Source: Magnetospirillum sp. SS-4 (GTDB lineage: Bacteria; Pseudomonadota; Alphaproteobacteria; Rhodospirillales; Magnetospirillaceae). From it: a stretch of DNA of 64,000 nucleotides. The notes beneath the pieces were generated by a model. It worked only from the letters and a program-made list of their open reading frames with translations. It ran no database searches and was not told the DNA's origin. A program made the position numbers and the translations under genes. The first letter of the stretch is position 1. Every line of letters begins with the position of its first letter. Shown in pieces: positions 6,964 through 14,608 of the stretch. The DNA lies in the NCBI RefSeq assembly GCF_902729425.1, contig NZ_CACVCH010000055.1, positions 1 through 64,000 of the forward strand, written 5' to 3'.

Positions 6964-7104
6964 GCCGGCCCCGTCCGGCGCCGGCTTGACCAACCTCTCA
7001 TTGCTTCACGGGCGCGGGCATGGCAAAACATGCCGCGACCGGCAAGGCGCGCATGTCCGGCGGCGCCAGTGGCCGGCAAAGACAAAGCTCGAAGGAGTTC
7101 CAGA

Positions 7105-7977
7105 ATGGCACGTCGCGTTCGCAAGGCCGTGTTTCCCGTCGGCGGCATGGGCACCCGTTTCCTGCCCGCCACCAAGGCGATGCCCAAGGAAATGCTGCCG
7201 GTGGTCGACAAGCCGTTGATCCAGTACGCCGTGGAAGAGGCCGCCGCCGCCGGTTGCGAGCACTTCATCTTCGTCACCGGCCGCGGCAAGAACGCGCTGG
7301 AAGACCATTTCGACAACAATCCCGAACTGGTCCGCACCCTGAAGGATCGCGGCAAGTTCGATCTGGTCGAGGCGGTGACCTCGTGGATGCCCAAGTCGGG
7401 CCAGATCTCCTACACCCGCCAGAGCGAGCCGCTGGGCCTGGGCCATGCGGTATGGTGCGCCCGCGACCTGGTGGCGGACGAGCCCTTCGCGGTGCTGCTG
7501 CCCGACGATCTGATCCTGGCCAAGACCGCCTGCCTGAAGCAGATGGCCGCCGTCCACACCGAGGTGGGCGGCCATGTGGTCGCCGTCGCCGACGTTCCGC
7601 GCGAACACACAAAGCGCTACGGCATCCTGGATGTGGAATTCGACAACGGCCGCCTCGCCAAGGCCAAGGGTCTGGTGGAAAAGCCCGAACCCGAGGTGGC
7701 GCCGTCGACCCTGTCCATCATCGGCCGCTATATCCTGCATCCGGCGGTGTTCGAGGTGCTGGACAAGAAGGAAAAGGGCGCCGGCGGCGAGATTCAACTG
7801 ACCGACGCCATCAGCCAGACCATCGGCATGGTGCCGTTCCACGGTCTGCGGTTCGATGGATCGCGCTTCGACTGCGGTGACAAGGTCGGTTGGCTGGAGG
7901 CCAATCTGGCCTTCGCCCTGGCCCGCGAGGACACCGCCGAGGCGGCCCGCGACCTGATCCGCCGTTTCCAGGCCTGA
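7105..7977 (+). CDS. galU: UTP-glucose-1-phosphate uridylyltransferase
   Basis: GalU makes UDP-glucose from UTP and glucose-1-phosphate in the cytoplasm. The 290-residue protein has the nucleotidyltransferase signature (GGMGTRFLPATKAMPKEMLP, about residues 12-31) and the GalU-specific stretches VDKPLIQYAVEEA and KPEPEVAPS. The ATG at 7105 is fixed by AAGGAG 7 bases upstream; the open frame extends further but without a ribosome site. It is followed 36 bases on by ugd, which uses its product, and then by the pse-type cluster. Length is normal for the family. Confidence 0.95.
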   Translation: MARRVRKAVFPVGGMGTRFLPATKAMPKEMLPVVDKPLIQYAVEEAAAAGCEHFIFVTGRGKNALEDHFDNNPELVRTLKDRGKFDLVEAVTSWMPKSGQISYTRQSEPLGLGHAVWCARDLVADEPFAVLLPDDLILAKTACLKQMAAVHTEVGGHVVAVADVPREHTKRYGILDVEFDNGRLAKAKGLVEKPEPEVAPSTLSIIGRYILHPAVFEVLDKKEKGAGGEIQLTDAISQTIGMVPFHGLRFDGSRFDCGDKVGWLEANLAFALAREDTAEAARDLIRRFQA

Positions 7978-8013: not shown

Positions 8014-9330
8014 ATGCGCATTGCCATGATCGGCACCGGCTATGTGGGTCTGGTGTCGGGGACCTGCTTCTCGGAATTCGGCATCCATGTGACCTGCGTC
8101 GACAAGGATGCCGCCAAGATCGAGAAGCTGGGCGAGAACGTCATGCCCATCTACGAACCGGGCCTGGACGAGATGGTCGCCGCCAATGTCGAGGCCGGAC
8201 GGCTGACCTTCACCACCGAGCTGGCCCCCGCCGTCAAGGCGGCCGACGCGGTCTTCATCGCCGTCGGCACGCCGTCGCGCCGGGGCGACGGCCATGCCGA
8301 CCTCAGCTACGTCTACGCCGCCGCCGAGGAAATCGCCGACGCCATGGACGGCTATACCGTGGTGGTGACCAAGTCGACCGTTCCGGTCGGCACCGGCGAC
8401 GAGGTCGAGCGCATCATCCGGGCGCGCCGTCCCGACGCCGATTTCGACGTGGTGTCCAATCCGGAATTCCTGCGCGAAGGCTCGGCCATCAACGACTTCA
8501 TGCGCCCCGACCGGGTGGTGATCGGCACCGAATCCGAACGCGCCCGCAAGGTGATGAAGCAGCTGTACCGGGTGCTGTTCCTGATCGAGACGCCGATCGT
8601 GTTCACCTCGCGCCGGACCTCGGAACTGATCAAGTATGCCGGCAACACCTTCCTGGCCACCAAGATCACCTTCATCAACGAGATCGCCGATTTGTGCGAG
8701 AAGGTCGGCGCCGACGTCCACGACGTCGCCAAGGGGATCGGGCTGGACGGCCGCATCGGCAGGAAGTTCCTGCATCCCGGCCCCGGTTACGGTGGATCGT
8801 GCTTTCCCAAGGACACCCTGGCGCTGGTCCGGACCGCGCGGGACTACGACGCCCCCTTGCGCATCGTCGAAACCGTGGTCGCCGTCAACGACCAGCGCAA
8901 GACGCAGATGGCGGAACGGGTGGTGGCGGCCTGCGGCGGTTCGGCCAAGGGCAAGACCGTCGCCGTGCTGGGCCTGACCTTCAAGCCCAACACCGACGAC
9001 ATGCGCGATTCGCCCGCCATCGACATCGTCACCGCCCTGATCGAGGCCGGGGCCGCGGTCAAGGCCTTCGACCCCGAGGGCATGCACGAGGCCGCCAAGC
9101 TGCTGCCCCGGGCGGTGACCTATTGCGGCGACGCCTACGCCACCATGCCCGGCGCCGATTGTCTGGTGATCATCACCGAGTGGAACGAGTTCCGCGCCCT
9201 TGATCTCGATCGGGTCAAGTCGCTGCTGAAGGCTCCGGCGGTGGTCGACCTCCGCAACGTCTACGCGCCCGACGAAATGGCCGAACTGGGATTCGCCTAC
9301 ACCTCCATCGGCAGGCCCGCCGCCCGCTGA
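8014..9330 (+). CDS. ugd: UDP-glucose 6-dehydrogenase
   Basis: Ugd oxidises UDP-glucose twice with NAD to give UDP-glucuronate, a precursor of acidic polysaccharides and lipid decorations. The 438-residue protein has the Rossmann motif GTGYVGLVSG (7-16), the catalytic cysteine at about 263 in GYGGSCFPKD, and the C-terminal UDP-binding part with LTFKPNTDDMRDSP. An AAGGAC ribosome site lies before the ATG. It follows galU directly and probably shares its transcript. Confidence 0.95.
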   Translation: MRIAMIGTGYVGLVSGTCFSEFGIHVTCVDKDAAKIEKLGENVMPIYEPGLDEMVAANVEAGRLTFTTELAPAVKAADAVFIAVGTPSRRGDGHADLSYVYAAAEEIADAMDGYTVVVTKSTVPVGTGDEVERIIRARRPDADFDVVSNPEFLREGSAINDFMRPDRVVIGTESERARKVMKQLYRVLFLIETPIVFTSRRTSELIKYAGNTFLATKITFINEIADLCEKVGADVHDVAKGIGLDGRIGRKFLHPGPGYGGSCFPKDTLALVRTARDYDAPLRIVETVVAVNDQRKTQMAERVVAACGGSAKGKTVAVLGLTFKPNTDDMRDSPAIDIVTALIEAGAAVKAFDPEGMHEAAKLLPRAVTYCGDAYATMPGADCLVIITEWNEFRALDLDRVKSLLKAPAVVDLRNVYAPDEMAELGFAYTSIGRPAAR

Positions 9331-9409: not shown

Positions 9410-10447
9410 GTGACCCTTCTGAACTCCTTTCAAGCCGACGATATCCGCGACAGGCTGGCGGGAAAGTCCGTCCTGGTCACCGGCGGGACCGGGTCGTTCG
9501 GAAAGCAATTCGTCCGGACCGTGCTGGGGCTCGACTGCGTCAAGCGCCTGATCGTTCTTTCCCGCGACGAGCAGAAGCATTTCGACATGATGCGGGAGTT
9601 CGACGACCGCAAATATCCCGCCATCCGCTATTTCCTGGGCGACGTCCGCGACCTGGAAAGGTTGCAAATGGCGTTCCGCAACGTCGACATCGTCGTCCAC
9701 GCCGCCGCCCAGAAGCACGTCCCCCTGGCCGAGTACAACCCCACCGAATGCCTGCGCACCAATGTGTGGGGCGCCGAGAACGTGGTGCGCGCCGCCCTGG
9801 ACAACGGGGTCGAGACGGTGATGGCGTTGTCCACCGACAAGGCGGTCAACCCGGTCAACCTCTACGGCGCCTCCAAGCTGGCGGCCGAGAAGGTGTTCAT
9901 CGCCGCCAACAATCTCAGCGGCCAGGGTCAGACCCGCTTTGGCGCGGTGCGCTACGGCAACGTGGTCGGCTCGCGCGGGTCGGTGGTGCCGTTCTTCCGC
10001 AATCTGATCAGGCAGAACGCCGATGCCCTGCCCATCACCGACGACCGCATGACCCGCTTTTGGATCACGTTGCAGCAGGGGGTGAACTTCGTGCTGTCGT
10101 CCATGTGCATGATGAAGGGCGGCGAGATCTTCATTCCCAAGATTCCCAGCATGAAGATGACCGACCTGGCCCATGCCATGGCGCCCGACATGCCCATCAA
10201 GATCGTCGGCATCCGCCCCGGCGAGAAGCTGCACGAGGTCATGGTCAACGAGGAGGAGGCCCGCACCACCCGCGAACTGGCCGACCGCTACGTGATCCAT
10301 CCCATGCTGTCCTACTGGGCCGGCGGCGACCAGCCGGAGGGCGAGCCGGTGCCCGAGGATTTCCGCTATGCCAGCAACACCAACACCTGGTGGCTGCCCG
10401 AGCCGGAACTGCTGGGCATGATCAGCCGCCTCGACATGGATCTATGA
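9410..10447 (+). CDS. pseB: UDP-N-acetylglucosamine 4,6-dehydratase (inverting), PseB-like
   Basis: PseB opens the pseudaminic acid route by converting UDP-GlcNAc to the 4-keto-6-deoxy-altrose form. The 345-residue extended SDR has the cofactor loop TGGTGSFGKQFV, the STDKAVNP stretch and the YxxxK catalytic pair (YGASK), in the arrangement seen in PseB/FlaA1-type dehydratases. The start is GTG at 9410, set by AAGGA 9 bases before; there is no nearer ATG. Its stop overlaps the pseC start (ATGA). The next three genes are also ATGA-linked, so this begins a four-gene operon. Confidence 0.88.
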   Translation: MTLLNSFQADDIRDRLAGKSVLVTGGTGSFGKQFVRTVLGLDCVKRLIVLSRDEQKHFDMMREFDDRKYPAIRYFLGDVRDLERLQMAFRNVDIVVHAAAQKHVPLAEYNPTECLRTNVWGAENVVRAALDNGVETVMALSTDKAVNPVNLYGASKLAAEKVFIAANNLSGQGQTRFGAVRYGNVVGSRGSVVPFFRNLIRQNADALPITDDRMTRFWITLQQGVNFVLSSMCMMKGGEIFIPKIPSMKMTDLAHAMAPDMPIKIVGIRPGEKLHEVMVNEEEARTTRELADRYVIHPMLSYWAGGDQPEGEPVPEDFRYASNTNTWWLPEPELLGMISRLDMDL

Positions 10448-11625
10448 CCCGTCCGCTGCCCTATGGCCGTCAGGTCATCGAGGACGACGACATCGCCGCC
10501 GTGGTGGCGGTGCTGAAATCCGATATTCTGACCGGCGGCCCGGCGGTTTCCGGATTCGAGGCCGCCCTGGCCGGGATTGCCGCCGCTCCCCATGCGGTGG
10601 CCTGCAATTCGGGCACCGCCGGCCTGCATCTCGCCGCCCTGGCGCTGGACCTGGGGCCGGGCGACGCGGTGATCGTGCCCAGCGTCACCTTCGTCGCCAC
10701 CGCCAACGCGGCCCGCTATGTGGGGGCCGAAGCGGTGTTCGCCGACGTCGATCCCGCCACCGGCCTGATGGGGCCGGATCATCTGGACGAGGCGCTGACC
10801 CGCTGCGGCGGCTTGCGGCCCAAGGCGGTGTTTCCGGTTCATCTCAACGGCCAGTGCGCCGACATGCCGGGCCTCGGGGCGCTCGCCCGCCGCCATGGCC
10901 TCGCGGTGGTGGAGGATGCCTGCCACGCCCTCGGCAGCCTGCAATCCGACGACCGCCCCACCGGCGCCTGCGCTCATTCCGACATGGCGGTGTTCTCGTT
11001 CCACCCGGTCAAGACGGTCGCCATGGGGGAAGGCGGCGCCGTCACCACCCGTGATGCCCGGCTCGATGCCCGGCTGCGGCTGTTCCGCAGCCACGGCATC
11101 ACCCGCGAGCCCGCCGAATTCCTTCAGCCGGACGAGGCCTTCGACGGCGAGGGCCGGCCCAATCCCTGGTATTACGAGATGGCGCGGCCCGGCTTCAATT
11201 ACCGCGCCTGTGACATCGTCTGCGCGCTCGGCACCAGCCAGTTGGCCAAGCTGGACCGCTTCAGGACCCGCCGCGCCGAACTGATGGCCCTTTACGAGCG
11301 TCTGCTGCCGCCCGCCGCCCGCCCCATCGGCCGCGTGAGCGGCGGCCGTCCGTCCTGGCACATCATGGTGGTCCACATCGACTTCGAGGCCCACGGCACC
11401 AGCCGGGCGGCGGTGATGCGCGCCCTGGCCGGCCAGGGCGTCTCCACCCAGGTGCATTACCTGCCGGTCCACCGCCAGCCCTATTACCGCGGGCGCTTCC
11501 CCGGCCTGACGCTGCCCGGCGCCGACGAGTATTACCGCCGCTGCCTGACCCTGCCGCTGTTCGTCGGCATGGATGACGGCGATGTCGTCCGTGTGGCCGA
11601 AGCCCTGGCTCGGCTGCTGTCATGA
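10444..11625 (+). CDS. pseC: PseC-like sugar aminotransferase (DegT/DnrJ/EryC1 family)
   Basis: PseC uses PLP and glutamate to aminate C4 of the PseB product. The 393-residue protein carries the family landmarks NSGTAGLHLAAL, VVEDACHALGS (PLP-contacting Asp about 158) and SFHPVKTVAMGEGG with the Schiff-base lysine at about 190. Position next to pseB supports the PseC assignment over other DegT enzymes. The ATG overlaps the pseB stop by 4 bases and the pseC stop overlaps the next start in the same way. Confidence 0.88.
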   Translation: MTRPLPYGRQVIEDDDIAAVVAVLKSDILTGGPAVSGFEAALAGIAAAPHAVACNSGTAGLHLAALALDLGPGDAVIVPSVTFVATANAARYVGAEAVFADVDPATGLMGPDHLDEALTRCGGLRPKAVFPVHLNGQCADMPGLGALARRHGLAVVEDACHALGSLQSDDRPTGACAHSDMAVFSFHPVKTVAMGEGGAVTTRDARLDARLRLFRSHGITREPAEFLQPDEAFDGEGRPNPWYYEMARPGFNYRACDIVCALGTSQLAKLDRFRTRRAELMALYERLLPPAARPIGRVSGGRPSWHIMVVHIDFEAHGTSRAAVMRALAGQGVSTQVHYLPVHRQPYYRGRFPGLTLPGADEYYRRCLTLPLFVGMDDGDVVRVAEALARLLS

Positions 11626-12575
11626 TCGCCGTTCTTGGCCTGGGCAGCATCGGCCTGCGCCATGCCCGCAACGCCCTGGCCCTGGGCGAGGCGGTGATCG
11701 GCTGCGATCCCTCGCCCGAGCGCCGCGCCCTGCTGGAAGCCGAGGGAGGAACCGCCACCGGTTCGCGGGATGCCGCCCTGGACGCCGCCTCGGCCTGCGT
11801 CGTCGCCACGCCGTCGGACCGGCACGAGGACGACCTTGCCGCCGCCATCGATTCCGGCCGCCACGCTTTGGTGGAAAAGCCCATCGGCCACCGCGTCGGC
11901 CGCCTGCCGGAGCTGCTGGACCAGGCCGAAGCCGCCGGTCTGGTGGTCGCCGCCGCCCTCAATCTGCGCCTGCATCCCTGCGTCCGCCTCGCCAAGGCGA
12001 TCCTGGCGGAAGGCGGGCTGGGCAGGCCGCTGTGGGGCCGCTTCCTCGCCGCCCTCTATCTGCCCGACTGGCGGCCCGGCCAGGACTGGACCCAGGGCTA
12101 CGCCAACGATCCCCGCACCGGCGGCGCCATCTTCGACTACATCCACGAATTCGATCTGGCCGCCCATCTGCTGGGGTCGTTCACCCCGGCCGCCTGCGTC
12201 GCCCGCAACTCGGGCACCCTGGGGCTGGCCTCCGAGGACATGGCCGACGCGGTGCTGCTCCATCCTGACGGCGTCAGCTCCAGCGTCCATGTGGATTACG
12301 TGACGCGGCCGCGCATGCGCGGCTTCTACATCGCCGGAACCGAGGGCCACATCCATGTGGACCTGGACCGCCGCCATATCCGCCGGATCGATTCCGCCGG
12401 CCTGGTCCTGCTGGACCAGAGCCTGGACGGCGGCTATGGCGACGACTACATCACCGAGATGGCCGCCTTCCTCGCCAGCCTCAAGGGCGCGCCGCCGGTC
12501 TGCGGCGGCCGCGAGGCCCTGGCGGTGCTGGAGGGCGTCATCAAGGCCCGCTCTCTTGCCGGATTGCCGTCATGA
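11622..12575 (+). CDS. Gfo/Idh/MocA-family oxidoreductase
   Basis: The 317-residue protein has an N-terminal nucleotide-binding fold (IAVLGLGSIGLRHARNAL), the family motif EKPIGHR at about residue 86-92 where the lysine helps catalysis, and a C-terminal alpha/beta sheet domain with GGAIFDYIHEFD. These enzymes oxidise or reduce sugars, often nucleotide sugars, with NAD(P). The standard pseudaminic acid pathway has no such step, so its presence inside a pse-type operon points to an altered sugar. Substrate cannot be read from the sequence. It is ATGA-linked on both sides. Confidence 0.85.
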   Translation: MIAVLGLGSIGLRHARNALALGEAVIGCDPSPERRALLEAEGGTATGSRDAALDAASACVVATPSDRHEDDLAAAIDSGRHALVEKPIGHRVGRLPELLDQAEAAGLVVAAALNLRLHPCVRLAKAILAEGGLGRPLWGRFLAALYLPDWRPGQDWTQGYANDPRTGGAIFDYIHEFDLAAHLLGSFTPAACVARNSGTLGLASEDMADAVLLHPDGVSSSVHVDYVTRPRMRGFYIAGTEGHIHVDLDRRHIRRIDSAGLVLLDQSLDGGYGDDYITEMAAFLASLKGAPPVCGGREALAVLEGVIKARSLAGLPS

Positions 12576-14608
12576 CCGCCATCGCCATCATTCAGGCCCG
12601 CCTGTCGTCCACCCGCCTGCCCGGCAAGGTGCTGCTGCCGCTTGGGGGGCGTCCGGTGCTGGAGTGGGTGGCGCGGGCGGCCCAGGCCATTCCCGGCATT
12701 CATAAGGTGGTGGTGGCCACCAGCGTCGGGGCCGACGACGATGCCGTCGCCGCCTGGGCCGAGGGCTTCGGACTCGCCTGCCACCGCGGCCCGCTCGACG
12801 ACGTGCTGGAGCGCTTCGCCCAGGCGGCGCGGGCCGAGAACGCCGACATCATCATGCGTCTGACCGCCGATTGCCCGCTGCTGGACCCGCAGGTGTGCGG
12901 CGAGGTGCTGGCACTGCTGAAGCGCACCGGATCGAGCTATGCCAGCAATGCCACGCCGCCATCCTGGCCCGACGGCCTGGATTGCGAGGCCTTCACCCGC
13001 ACCGCCCTGGACGAGGCCGCCGCCGAGGCAACCCGGTCCAGCGACCGCGAGCACGTCACCGTCTTCATCCGCGACCGCCGCCACCGTTTCCCCCAGGCCA
13101 GCCTGGTCTGTCCGCTGCCCGGCCTCTCCGCCGAGCGCTGGACCCTGGACGAGCCGGCCGATCTCGACTTCCTCGAAGCGGTGGCGGAGCATCTCCCGGA
13201 ACGTCCCTCCTACCTGGACGTGCTGGGCGTGCTGGACGCGCGCCCCGAACTGCGCGCCATCAACGCCCGCATCACGCGCAACGAGGGTTTCGTCAAATCG
13301 CTGCGCCGGGAGAGCCTGCCGCCGTGGAACGGCGCCGCCACCAGCACGGCGCTGCTGAAGCGGGCCGAGGCGGTGATCCCGCTGGGCAGCCAGACCTTCT
13401 CGAAAAGTCGCATCCAGTATCCCGAGGATTCGCCCATGTTCCTGACCCACGGCCTGAACGGCCGGGTGTGGGACGTGGACGGCAATTGCTATGTGGACAT
13501 GGTGTGCGGCCTGCTGCCGGTGGTGCTGGGCTATCAGGATTCCGACGTGGATGCCGCCATCCGGGGGCAACTGTCCAACGGTATCTCGTTCAGCCTCGCC
13601 ACCTTGCTGGAGACCCAACTGGCCGAGCGGCTGGTGGAGCTGATCCCCTGCGCCGAGATGGTGCGGTTCGGCAAGAACGGCACCGACGCCACCAGCGCCG
13701 CCATCCGCCTCGCCCGCGCCCATACCGGCCGCGACCGCGTCGCCGCCTGCGGCTATCACGGCTGGCAGGACTGGTATATCGGCGCCACCACCCGCAACAA
13801 GGGGGTGCCCGCCGCCACCCAGACCCTGACCCATCTGCTGCCCTACAACGATCTCGACGCCGCCCGCGCCCTGTTCAAGGCCCATCCCGGCGAGTTCGCC
13901 GCCCTGATCATGGAGCCCATGAACGCGGTCGATCCGGCGCCGGGCTATCTGGAGGCGCTGAAGGAACTGGTTCATGCCGAGGGCGCCCTGCTGGTGTTCG
14001 ACGAGGTCATCACCGGCTTCCGCTATCACCTGGGCGGGGCGCAGAGCCTGTTCGGCGTTACCCCCGACCTCGCCTCGTTCGGCAAGTCCATGGGCAACGG
14101 CATGCCGATCTCGGCGGTGATGGGCAAGGCTGGCATCATGCGCGAGATGGAGAACGTGTTCATTTCCGGCACGTTCGGCGGCGAGGCGCTCTCGCTGGCC
14201 GCCTCCATCGCCGTCATCGACAAGATGAAGCGGGAACCGGTGATCCAGACGCTGTGGTCCACCGGCCAGATCCTGGCCGACGAGGTGGCGAAACTGGCCG
14301 CCGGTCACGGGCTTGCCGACATCTTCTCGCTGGTGGGCAAGGCGCCGTGGAAGATCCTGGCGGTGCAGGACCACCCCACCGCCCGCAAGGAGGCCATCAA
14401 GACCCTGTTCGCCCGCGAGATGCTGCGGGCCGGCGTGCTGTTCCTGGCCAGCCACAACGTCTGCTATTCCCACGATTCCGAGGATATCAACCGGGTGCTG
14501 GCCGCCTGGGACCGGGCGCTGGCCAAGGTGGCCGCGGAACTGGCGACGGGAAGGCTGGAGGAGCGGCTGCCCTGTCCGGTGGTGATGCCGGTGTTCAAGG
14601 TGCGGTAA
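12572..14608 (+). CDS. Fusion of an SpsF-like cytidylyltransferase and a class III aminotransferase (GSAM-like)
   Basis: Residues 1-235 are a CMP-sugar synthetase of the SpsF/NeuA type, with QARLSSTRLPGKVL at 8-21, RLTADCPLLDP at 96-106 and DREHVT at about 158. Residues about 260-678 are a PLP aminotransferase of the glutamate-1-semialdehyde aminomutase group: GNDV-type start region, FDEVITGFR (Asp about 477) and the Schiff-base lysine about 505 in SFGKSMGNG. Both halves keep their key residues, so both may be active. The pair presumably aminates and activates a sugar made by the three upstream enzymes; that role is inferred from position. It ends the operon and overlaps the convergent helicase gene by 14 bases. 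Confidence 0.88.
   Translation: MTAIAIIQARLSSTRLPGKVLLPLGGRPVLEWVARAAQAIPGIHKVVVATSVGADDDAVAAWAEGFGLACHRGPLDDVLERFAQAARAENADIIMRLTADCPLLDPQVCGEVLALLKRTGSSYASNATPPSWPDGLDCEAFTRTALDEAAAEATRSSDREHVTVFIRDRRHRFPQASLVCPLPGLSAERWTLDEPADLDFLEAVAEHLPERPSYLDVLGVLDARPELRAINARITRNEGFVKSLRRESLPPWNGAATSTALLKRAEAVIPLGSQTFSKSRIQYPEDSPMFLTHGLNGRVWDVDGNCYVDMVCGLLPVVLGYQDSDVDAAIRGQLSNGISFSLATLLETQLAERLVELIPCAEMVRFGKNGTDATSAAIRLARAHTGRDRVAACGYHGWQDWYIGATTRNKGVPAATQTLTHLLPYNDLDAARALFKAHPGEFAALIMEPMNAVDPAPGYLEALKELVHAEGALLVFDEVITGFRYHLGGAQSLFGVTPDLASFGKSMGNGMPISAVMGKAGIMREMENVFISGTFGGEALSLAASIAVIDKMKREPVIQTLWSTGQILADEVAKLAAGHGLADIFSLVGKAPWKILAVQDHPTARKEAIKTLFAREMLRAGVLFLASHNVCYSHDSEDINRVLAAWDRALAKVAAELATGRLEERLPCPVVMPVFKVR

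What the first reader, a model, noticed from the sequence alone, without database searches (positions are those of the whole stretch)
9410..14608. Pse-type operon without pseG/H/I but with an oxidoreductase and a fused cytidylyltransferase-aminotransferase
Four ATGA-linked genes encode PseB, PseC, a Gfo/Idh/MocA oxidoreductase and one polypeptide joining an SpsF-like CMP-sugar synthetase to a GSAM-like aminotransferase. In the known pseudaminic acid pathway PseH, PseG, PseI and PseF follow PseBC; none except a possible PseF counterpart is in the window. The combination predicts a different CMP-activated amino sugar or a shortened route.
Basis: partly seen in the sequence, partly recalled or inferred. 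Interest (0 to 1): 0.7.

Follow-up and report, generated by a model that had tools for sequence, protein, structure and literature searches.

The report
Likely amino-modified pseudaminic acid operon
Four linked genes make the first and last parts of a bacterial sialic-acid-like sugar, and the fused enzyme at the end, together with its oxidoreductase partner, most likely swaps one hydroxyl of that sugar for an amino group.

Summary
The four genes are real: pseB, pseC, a Gfo/Idh/MocA oxidoreductase and one 678-aa protein joining an SpsF-type cytidylyltransferase to a HemL-like class III aminotransferase, linked by ATGA overlaps. The fusion is full-length in at least 27 other genomes of a 297-genome order sample. 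The shortened route is not supported: the genome has a bona fide PseI in a flagellar cluster and a PseG fused to a PseH-like domain; four same-genus relatives carry all these genes in one locus. So this is a pseudaminic acid pathway plus an extra module. Among 61 PseI loci across the phylum, an oxidoreductase stands beside PseI in 5 of 6 loci with the aminotransferase and in 0 of 55 without; in the window's order it is mostly Gfo, elsewhere an unrelated aldo/keto reductase. The aminotransferase keeps its PLP lysine, lacks HemL substrate features, and has its best listed TM-score to FumI, which acts on a CH3-CH(NH2)- group. I infer oxidation then amination of C8, giving CMP-8-amino-8-deoxy-pseudaminic acid. 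A published 403-Da Aeromonas flagellin sugar and an 8-amino nonulosonate from Flexibacter (Tenacibaculum) maritimus fit. Position and chemistry are unproven. Phage contigs carry the same module.

The parts
9410..10447 (+). pseB, inverting UDP-GlcNAc 4,6-dehydratase (345 aa, GTG start)
   Evidence: TIGR03589 483.4 bits, cut-off 407.75
10444..11625 (+). pseC, C4 aminotransferase (393 aa), ATGA overlap with pseB
   Evidence: TIGR03588 469.5 bits, cut-off 423.5
11622..12575 (+). Gfo/Idh/MocA oxidoreductase (317 aa), ATGA overlap with pseC; proposed C8 dehydrogenase of the (CMP-)nonulosonate
   Evidence: PF22725 and PF01408; EKP motif (E85-K86-P87, codons 11874-11882) in 33 of 34 relatives; H175, E176 and D178 at least 90% conserved
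12572..14608 (+). fused SpsF-type cytidylyltransferase and HemL-like class III aminotransferase (678 aa), ATGA overlap with the oxidoreductase gene
12572..13291 (+). cytidylyltransferase domain (aa 1-240); proposed PseF counterpart
   Evidence: CTP_transf_3; QARxxSxRxPGK invariant in the 23 aligned fusions; only 25 bits to PseF TIGR03584 (cut-off 205.7)
13343..14605 (+). class III aminotransferase domain (aa 258-678); PLP lysine K505 at 14084-14086 (role by alignment to HemL)
   Evidence: K505 invariant in the 23 aligned fusions; HemL-type fold; best listed TM-score to FumI

Best explanation
The operon supplies the first two and the last steps of a modified pseudaminic acid (Pse) pathway whose middle steps are encoded elsewhere in the same genome. 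Shown by sequence: PseB and PseC here; PseG with a PseH-like domain, and PseI, on contig C69. Inferred: after PseI makes Pse5Ac7Ac, the Gfo/Idh/MocA enzyme oxidises a hydroxyl with NAD(P), the HemL-like domain of the fusion transaminates the ketone, and its SpsF-type domain attaches CMP (the order of amination and CMP transfer is unknown). On finished Pse5Ac7Ac only C4-OH and C8-OH are free hydroxyls besides the anomeric one; C8 is preferred because its ketone is an acyclic methyl ketone, the kind of group handled by FumI, the structurally closest characterised aminotransferase by listed TM-score. The product would be CMP-8-amino-8-deoxy-pseudaminic acid, probably for flagellin.
For: Pathway in the genome; PseI among flagellar genes; one contiguous locus in four same-genus relatives L047-L050. 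Coupling: of 61 PseI loci (phylum sample of 398, own excluded), an AKR or Gfo within the fetched stretch in 5 of 6 with the aminotransferase (the sixth contig starts inside that gene) and 0 of 55 without, Fisher p 1.0e-6; all five are AKR. Unrelated oxidoreductases in one slot: Gfo in 14 and AKR in 2 of 20 order loci, AKR in 10 of 19 phylum loci, between PseC and the cytidylyltransferase. Same set as separate genes in a NeuB/NeuC-type cluster, L108. Aminotransferase likely active but no HemL: lysine invariant in 23; HemL NSPVR stretch replaced; loop shorter; best listed TM-score FumI, TMt 0.91, rmsd 2.5, which turns CH3-CH(NH2)-CH(OH)-R into its 2-ketone (PMC2933618 passages). Precedent: EpaA (CTP + AKR) with EpaB changes C8 of Pse (PMC12053666 passages). 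Chemistry: A. hydrophila AH-1 flagellin sugar 403 Da, an odd nominal mass, so odd N, with three fragments one unit from those of Pse5Ac7Ac9Ac (PMC4691044; parity); an 8-amino pentadeoxynonulosonate in Flexibacter (Tenacibaculum) maritimus (PMC3210612 section 3.1).
Against: No enzyme assay or glycan analysis exists here; position C8 rests on analogy. The matched control shows coupling for AKR only; for Gfo the support is the conserved slot, without a matched control in the order. Four of the 55 loci counted as lacking the aminotransferase are in genomes that have it elsewhere (G736, G796, G836, G962). 4 of 20 order loci and 9 of 19 phylum loci show no Gfo or AKR at 60 bits, and 6 of the 19 no pse gene. 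In relatives G140, G164 and G176 the best match to the PseI part is only 37-43% identical. The text I read does not say which island AH-1 has; of 31 A. hydrophila strains in groups I and III, 29 are in subgroups with the aminotransferase (27 IA, 2 IB; 2 IIIC without it by name). AH-1's mass is low resolution, the intact-protein spacing was given as 404 Da, several fragments equal those of Pse5Ac7Ac9Ac, and the authors proposed a nitrogen-free formula. I could not reach a Tenacibaculum genome. PseA-like, HisH and HisF genes in some loci are another source of a third nitrogen.
Confidence: 0.55

Rival explanations
1. Amination is real but at another place: the oxidoreductase and aminotransferase build or modify an acyl substituent, or aminate C4, of a pseudaminic acid derivative.
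For: Class III aminotransferases also include beta-transaminases (PDB matches). Pse is known with unusual acyl groups, such as lactyl (PMC7281560 passages). The odd mass of AH-1 needs only one extra nitrogen somewhere.
Against: The aminotransferase is fused to the cytidylyltransferase, as expected for an enzyme acting late on the sugar; its best listed TM-score is to a methyl-ketone/amine enzyme; the one natural triamino nonulosonate I found bears the third amine at C8.
Confidence: 0.2
2. Conventional pseudaminic acid is made; the oxidoreductase and aminotransferase domain are accessory or serve another sugar or reaction, such as 8-epimerisation.
For: Pse genes are present in the genome; EpaA/EpaB show enzymes beside Pse doing 8-epimerisation; related aminotransferases also occur without pse genes nearby (6 of 19 loci); the genome has a second nonulosonate cluster.
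Against: Co-occurrence of oxidoreductase and aminotransferase (5 of 6 against 0 of 55), their shared slot and the invariant lysine. Epimerisation alone would not need an aminotransferase.
Confidence: 0.2
3. Shortened route without PseG, PseH and PseI.
For: None of these genes is in the window; phage contigs with the module showed no PseG (0 of 35 at E 1e-8), so a shortened or host-completed route may exist there.
Against: PseI and PseG over their cut-offs in the same genome; four relatives carry all in one locus.
Confidence: 0.03
4. The aminotransferase domain replaces PseC in C4 amination.
For: In four relatives of genus g4 (L051, L053-L055) pseB, Gfo and the fusion stand without pseC beside them.
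Against: The five g4 genomes G140, G083, G164, G249 and G176 have a PseC-like protein at 56-59% identity elsewhere, and G094 one at 68% on the contig of its fusion; the window has both.
Confidence: 0.02

Closest known systems
Pseudaminic acid pathway PseB-PseC-PseH-PseG-PseI-PseF (Campylobacter/Helicobacter type)
   Same: PseB, PseC, PseG and PseI pass family cut-offs in this genome; PseG joined to a PseH-like domain, as reported for A. caviae Sch3N (PMC7874193 passages)
   Different: The cytidylyltransferase is SpsF-type (25 bits to PseF, cut-off 205.7) and fused to a class III aminotransferase; an oxidoreductase is added; the genes are split between the window contig and another
Aeromonas group I flagellin glycosylation islands, subgroups IA-IE (PMC7874193, section 16 read in full, other passages)
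   Same: [quoted passage not shown] both absent in subgroups IF and IG
   Different: There the oxidoreductase is an aldo/keto reductase and the aminotransferase is described as its own gene; no function was assigned in the text I read; homology to the window domain was not tested
EpaA/EpaB, 8-epimerisation of Pse in Acinetobacter baumannii prophages (PMC12053666 passages)
   Same: CTP_transf_3 domain fused to a second enzyme; the pair changes C8 of Pse; carried by phages
   Different: Fused to an aldo/keto reductase, partner an SDR; product an 8-epimer, no amination
Kdo8N pathway KdnB/KdnA of Shewanella (KdnB as Kdo 8-oxidase: PMC5125639 passages; KdnA and the rest recalled)
   Same: Oxidoreductase plus aminotransferase convert a C8 hydroxyl of an ulosonate to an amine
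   Different: Kdo, not Pse; other enzyme families; terminal aldehyde, not methyl ketone
L. pneumophila Sg6/Sg12 O-antigen cluster (PMC3694923 passages, table rows)
   Same: PseG, a gene annotated glutamate-1-semialdehyde aminomutase, an acylneuraminate cytidylyltransferase, an aldo/keto reductase, DegT, CapD and NeuB together
   Different: Separate genes; function of the aminomutase-like gene not assigned in the passages I saw

Membership tests
Pseudaminic acid biosynthesis (whole pathway) | PseB, PseC, PseG and PseI over their NCBIfam cut-offs in the genome | tested here: met
   TIGR03589 483.4, TIGR03588 469.5; TIGR03590 273.2, TIGR03586 499.6
Pseudaminic acid biosynthesis (whole pathway) | PseH over its cut-off | tested here: not met
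   GNAT half of the PseG fusion 30.6 bits, another hit 56.4 bits on C56; cut-off 93.1. PseH function of the fused domain is inferred from its place
Pseudaminic acid biosynthesis (whole pathway) | PseF over its cut-off | tested here: not met
   All five CTP_transf_3 hits of the genome are below 205.7: 155.1 (C18 NeuA-like), 30.6, 25.0 (window), 25.0, 22.3. SpsF-type enzymes also stand in 10 of 55 PseI loci without the aminotransferase
Glutamate-1-semialdehyde aminomutase (HemL) | Over a HemL model cut-off | tested here: not met
   251.7 bits against 527.3 for TIGR00713; 404.9 against 486 for PRK06209
Glutamate-1-semialdehyde aminomutase (HemL) | N-terminal NSPVR stretch and full gating loop (their roles recalled) | tested here: not met
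   Stretch replaced and loop shorter in the alignments to solved HemL chains; lysine kept
Gfo/Idh/MocA oxidoreductase | Both Pfam domains, dinucleotide motif, EKP motif (catalytic role recalled) | tested here: met
   PF22725 and PF01408 over cut-off; GxGxxG and EKP in the window protein, EKP in 33 of 34 relatives
8-amino-nonulosonate biosynthesis | Amination at C8 of the nonulosonate | not testable with these tools
   Needs enzymology or glycan analysis
EpaA/EpaB 8-epimerase pair | CTP domain fused to AKR, plus an SDR partner | tested here: not met
   Window fusion has Aminotran_3, its operon partner is Gfo

The most novel reading that the evidence does not exclude
An oxidoreductase (Gfo or, by non-homologous replacement, an aldo/keto reductase) with an SpsF-type cytidylyltransferase and a HemL-like aminotransferase, often fused, is the general biosynthetic module for 8-amino-8-deoxy nonulosonic acids, shared by flagellar and other glycan loci across phyla, and carried by tailed phages as a cassette with PseB, PseC and PseI but no PseG.
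Probability: 0.45. Interest if true: 0.75.

Novelty: new variant of a known kind. Interest (0 to 1): 0.55.

Why it matters
If right, it names candidate genes for a sugar known chemically from one fish bacterium, offers an explanation for an odd-mass flagellin sugar that its authors left unsolved, and adds an amine, hence a positive charge or a further acylation point, to the outer end of a flagellin sugar. It also shows phages carrying much of a nonulosonic acid pathway. Family models name the key domain a heme-synthesis enzyme, which would mislead.

Tried and rejected
Rejected: shortened route (PseG and PseI found); aminotransferase replacing PseC (PseC-like proteins present in the relatives that lack it locally); heme synthesis (below HemL cut-offs; no second match to the fused query at E 1e-40 in the own genome, but only 3 of 16 candidates were scored; that alphaproteobacteria make aminolevulinate by ALAS is recalled).

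Led nowhere: reaching Tenacibaculum maritimum to test its O-antigen genes (0, 34 and 0 hits; no Tenacibaculum in the 34 titles). A Flavobacteriaceae sample (397 genomes, 2 candidates scored each) gave 2 strong hits: one fused, with PseB, PseC, AKR and PseI (L107), one unfused in a NeuB/NeuC-type cluster (L108). The paper on the T. maritimum O-antigen cluster (PMC9796276) is not held. Passages of PMC3765264 (S. oneidensis flagellin, another gene set), PMC7371886, PMC9290775, PMC9853564, PMC5561996 and PMC4052302 gave nothing decisive.

Not in print: searches of the held library listed no paper that I saw to assign a function to this fusion or to the class III aminotransferase in Pse loci; most listed papers I saw as listings only, and most subscription papers are not held.
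Full report
What is in the window. Four ORFs run on the + strand from 9410 to 14608 with ATGA overlaps at 10444, 11622 and 12572. They encode PseB, PseC, a Gfo/Idh/MocA oxidoreductase and a 678-aa protein with an N-terminal CTP_transf_3 domain and a C-terminal class III aminotransferase nearest to HemL models. Upstream stand galU (7030-7977) and a UDP-glucose dehydrogenase gene (8014-9330).

The fusion is real. A search of 297 genomes of the order found matches in 147 at E 1e-40, many to one domain only; in at least 27 genomes besides the own one the listed match spans nearly the whole fusion. Alignment A1 of the window protein and 22 of them shows invariant nucleotidyltransferase motif residues and an invariant PLP lysine, K505. 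AlphaFold2 gives a confident model (mean pLDDT 87.1, pTM 0.85).

The rest of the pathway is elsewhere. The genome (4.53 Mb, 130 contigs, completeness 100) has a PseI at C69:164 kb (TIGR03586 499.6 bits, cut-off 340.25). Beside it are FliX, FlgN, rod-binding and FlgK genes by Pfam. A 483-aa protein at C69:280 kb has PseG (273 bits, cut-off 154) and a PseH-like GNAT domain (30.6 bits, below the cut-off of 93.1). In four same-genus relatives PseI, PseG-PseH, PseB, PseC, Gfo and the fusion form one locus (L047-L050). None of the five CTP_transf_3 proteins of the genome passes the PseF cut-off of 205.7: the NeuA-like one on C18 reaches 155.1, the others, the window domain included, 22-31. The C18 enzyme lies in a second nonulosonate cluster with NeuC (431 bits, cut-off 236), a NeuB-family protein and a PtmE-like gene (my label). 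The window domain is the more likely PseF counterpart because of its operon.

What the extra genes are for. I fetched the neighbourhoods of 20 of the 27 full-length order matches: all 20 have pse or neuB genes nearby at 100 bits, and 16 an oxidoreductase at 60 bits (14 Gfo, 2 AKR). A sample of 398 genomes of the phylum gave 19 others with a strong match at E 1e-95; that search scored only two candidates a genome and missed at least two genomes (G720, G1027) seen later. Of the 19 loci, 13 have pse or neuB genes and 10 an AKR, none a Gfo; four (L146, L153, L155, L157) show PseB-PseC-AKR-CTP-aminotransferase-PseG, then PseI or a NeuB-family gene. Two unrelated oxidoreductase families thus fill one slot.

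A test with a control. From the same phylum sample I took all 61 PseI loci over the family cut-off besides the own (L158 came). The aminotransferase is in 6. An AKR or Gfo lies in the fetched stretch (up to about 9.5 kb each side, less at contig ends) in 5 of these 6, all AKR, and the sixth contig starts inside the aminotransferase gene; it is in 0 of the 55 others. Fisher p is 1.0e-6, with the same counts at thresholds of 40 to 80 bits. Limits: the loci are related, so the p value overstates independence; the count is by locus, and four of the 55 are in genomes with the aminotransferase elsewhere (G736, G796, G836, G962); there is no matched control for Gfo in the order. An SpsF-type cytidylyltransferase is in 5 of 6 against 10 of 55 (p 0.0026), so it is not exclusive to the module.

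Why an amination, and why C8. The aminotransferase keeps the PLP lysine but not HemL's NSPVR stretch, and its gating loop is shorter (the roles of these features are recalled). By E-value Foldseek ranks HemL chains first; among the 50 rows listed the best TM-scores by target length are to FumI (0.91, 0.90 and 0.89, rmsd 2.3-2.5 Angstrom), against 0.82-0.86 and 2.9-4.2 for the HemL chains. FumI moves the amino group at C2 of hydrolysed fumonisin B1, CH3-CH(NH2)-CH(OH)-R, to pyruvate, leaving the methyl ketone (PMC2933618 passages). C8-C9 of a 9-deoxy nonulosonate looks similar after oxidation. A like set stands, as separate genes with Gfo, in a Flavobacteriaceae cluster with NeuB (471 bits, cut-off 400), NeuC-like, dehydratase-like and aminotransferase-like genes, which I read as legionaminic-type (L108); if so, the target is common to both sugars. 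I recall that Gfo genes also occur in legionaminic clusters without such an aminotransferase, so Gfo there may have another role. EpaA, a CTP-AKR fusion, with EpaB changes C8 of pseudaminic acid (PMC12053666 passages).

Chemistry in print. [quoted passage not shown] both are absent in IF and IG (PMC7874193 section 16). The polar flagellin sugar of A. hydrophila AH-1 is 403 Da on peptides with an oxonium ion at m/z 404; three of its fragments are one unit off those of Pse5Ac7Ac9Ac and five others are shared (PMC4691044 sections 2.1, 2.2 and Discussion). Every closed-shell CHNO formula of nominal mass 403 that I enumerated has an odd number of nitrogens; hydroxyl to amine shifts mass by -0.984. 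The 376-Da linking sugar of A. piscicola AH-3 has even nominal mass; I take AH-3 to be group II from its fgi-1 gene. The AH-1 authors proposed C19H32O9, without nitrogen, and the intact-protein spacing was given as 404 Da, so the parity argument needs an accurate mass. An acetamidino group would also add a nitrogen. An 8-amino-3,5,7,8,9-pentadeoxynonulosonic acid is known from Flexibacter (now Tenacibaculum) maritimus (PMC3210612 section 3.1). I could not reach its genome.

Phages. A scan of viral contigs with A1 gave 35 loci: 18 with the fusion in one ORF by my test, 22 with Gfo and 8 others with AKR, 29 PseB, 16 PseC, 23 PseI or NeuB, 0 PseG at E 1e-8 (three weak hits of 27-32 bits at E 0.01). 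A terminase like those of L226, L239 and L240 is in 15 of 35; PHROGs name terminase in those three, and a portal in L226. Whether such phages lean on host PseG is unknown.

Judgement. Presence of a Pse pathway in this genome: about 0.95. That the module adds an amino group to the nonulosonate: about 0.65. That this is at C8: about 0.55. A new variant of a known kind.

Noticed in passing
15 viral-contig loci among L224-L240 and L251, for example L239:4764-13916: Tailed-phage contigs with a terminase gene and, in L239, a cassette of a PseH-like GNAT, Gfo, fused cytidylyltransferase-aminotransferase, PseI, PseB and PseC-like genes; no PseG found.
   Followed up: partly
own genome C18:64-71 kb (L012:8237-14855): A second nonulosonic acid cluster: NeuC (TIGR03568 431 bits), a NeuB-family protein, a PglD/NeuD-like acetyltransferase, a NeuA-like cytidylyltransferase and a PtmE-like CBS-nucleotidyltransferase (last three labels partly my reading).
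   Followed up: partly
L013:9962-11788 (own genome C69, directly after PseG-PseH) and L048:1163-3160: A protein with a Glyco_trans_1_2 domain, and a TPR plus Glyco_trans_1_2 protein beside PseI in a relative: candidates for the flagellin glycosyltransferase.
   Followed up: no
L056, L061, L062, L063: Fusion loci that also hold PseA-like amidotransferase, HisH and HisF genes, suggesting acetamidino and amino modifications in one locus; L061-L063 also carry a second, separate cytidylyltransferase.
   Followed up: no
L159, L160 and L162: Relatives of the aminotransferase domain (46-55% identity) in loci with no pse or neuB gene found at 100 bits, so the family may serve other pathways too.
   Followed up: no
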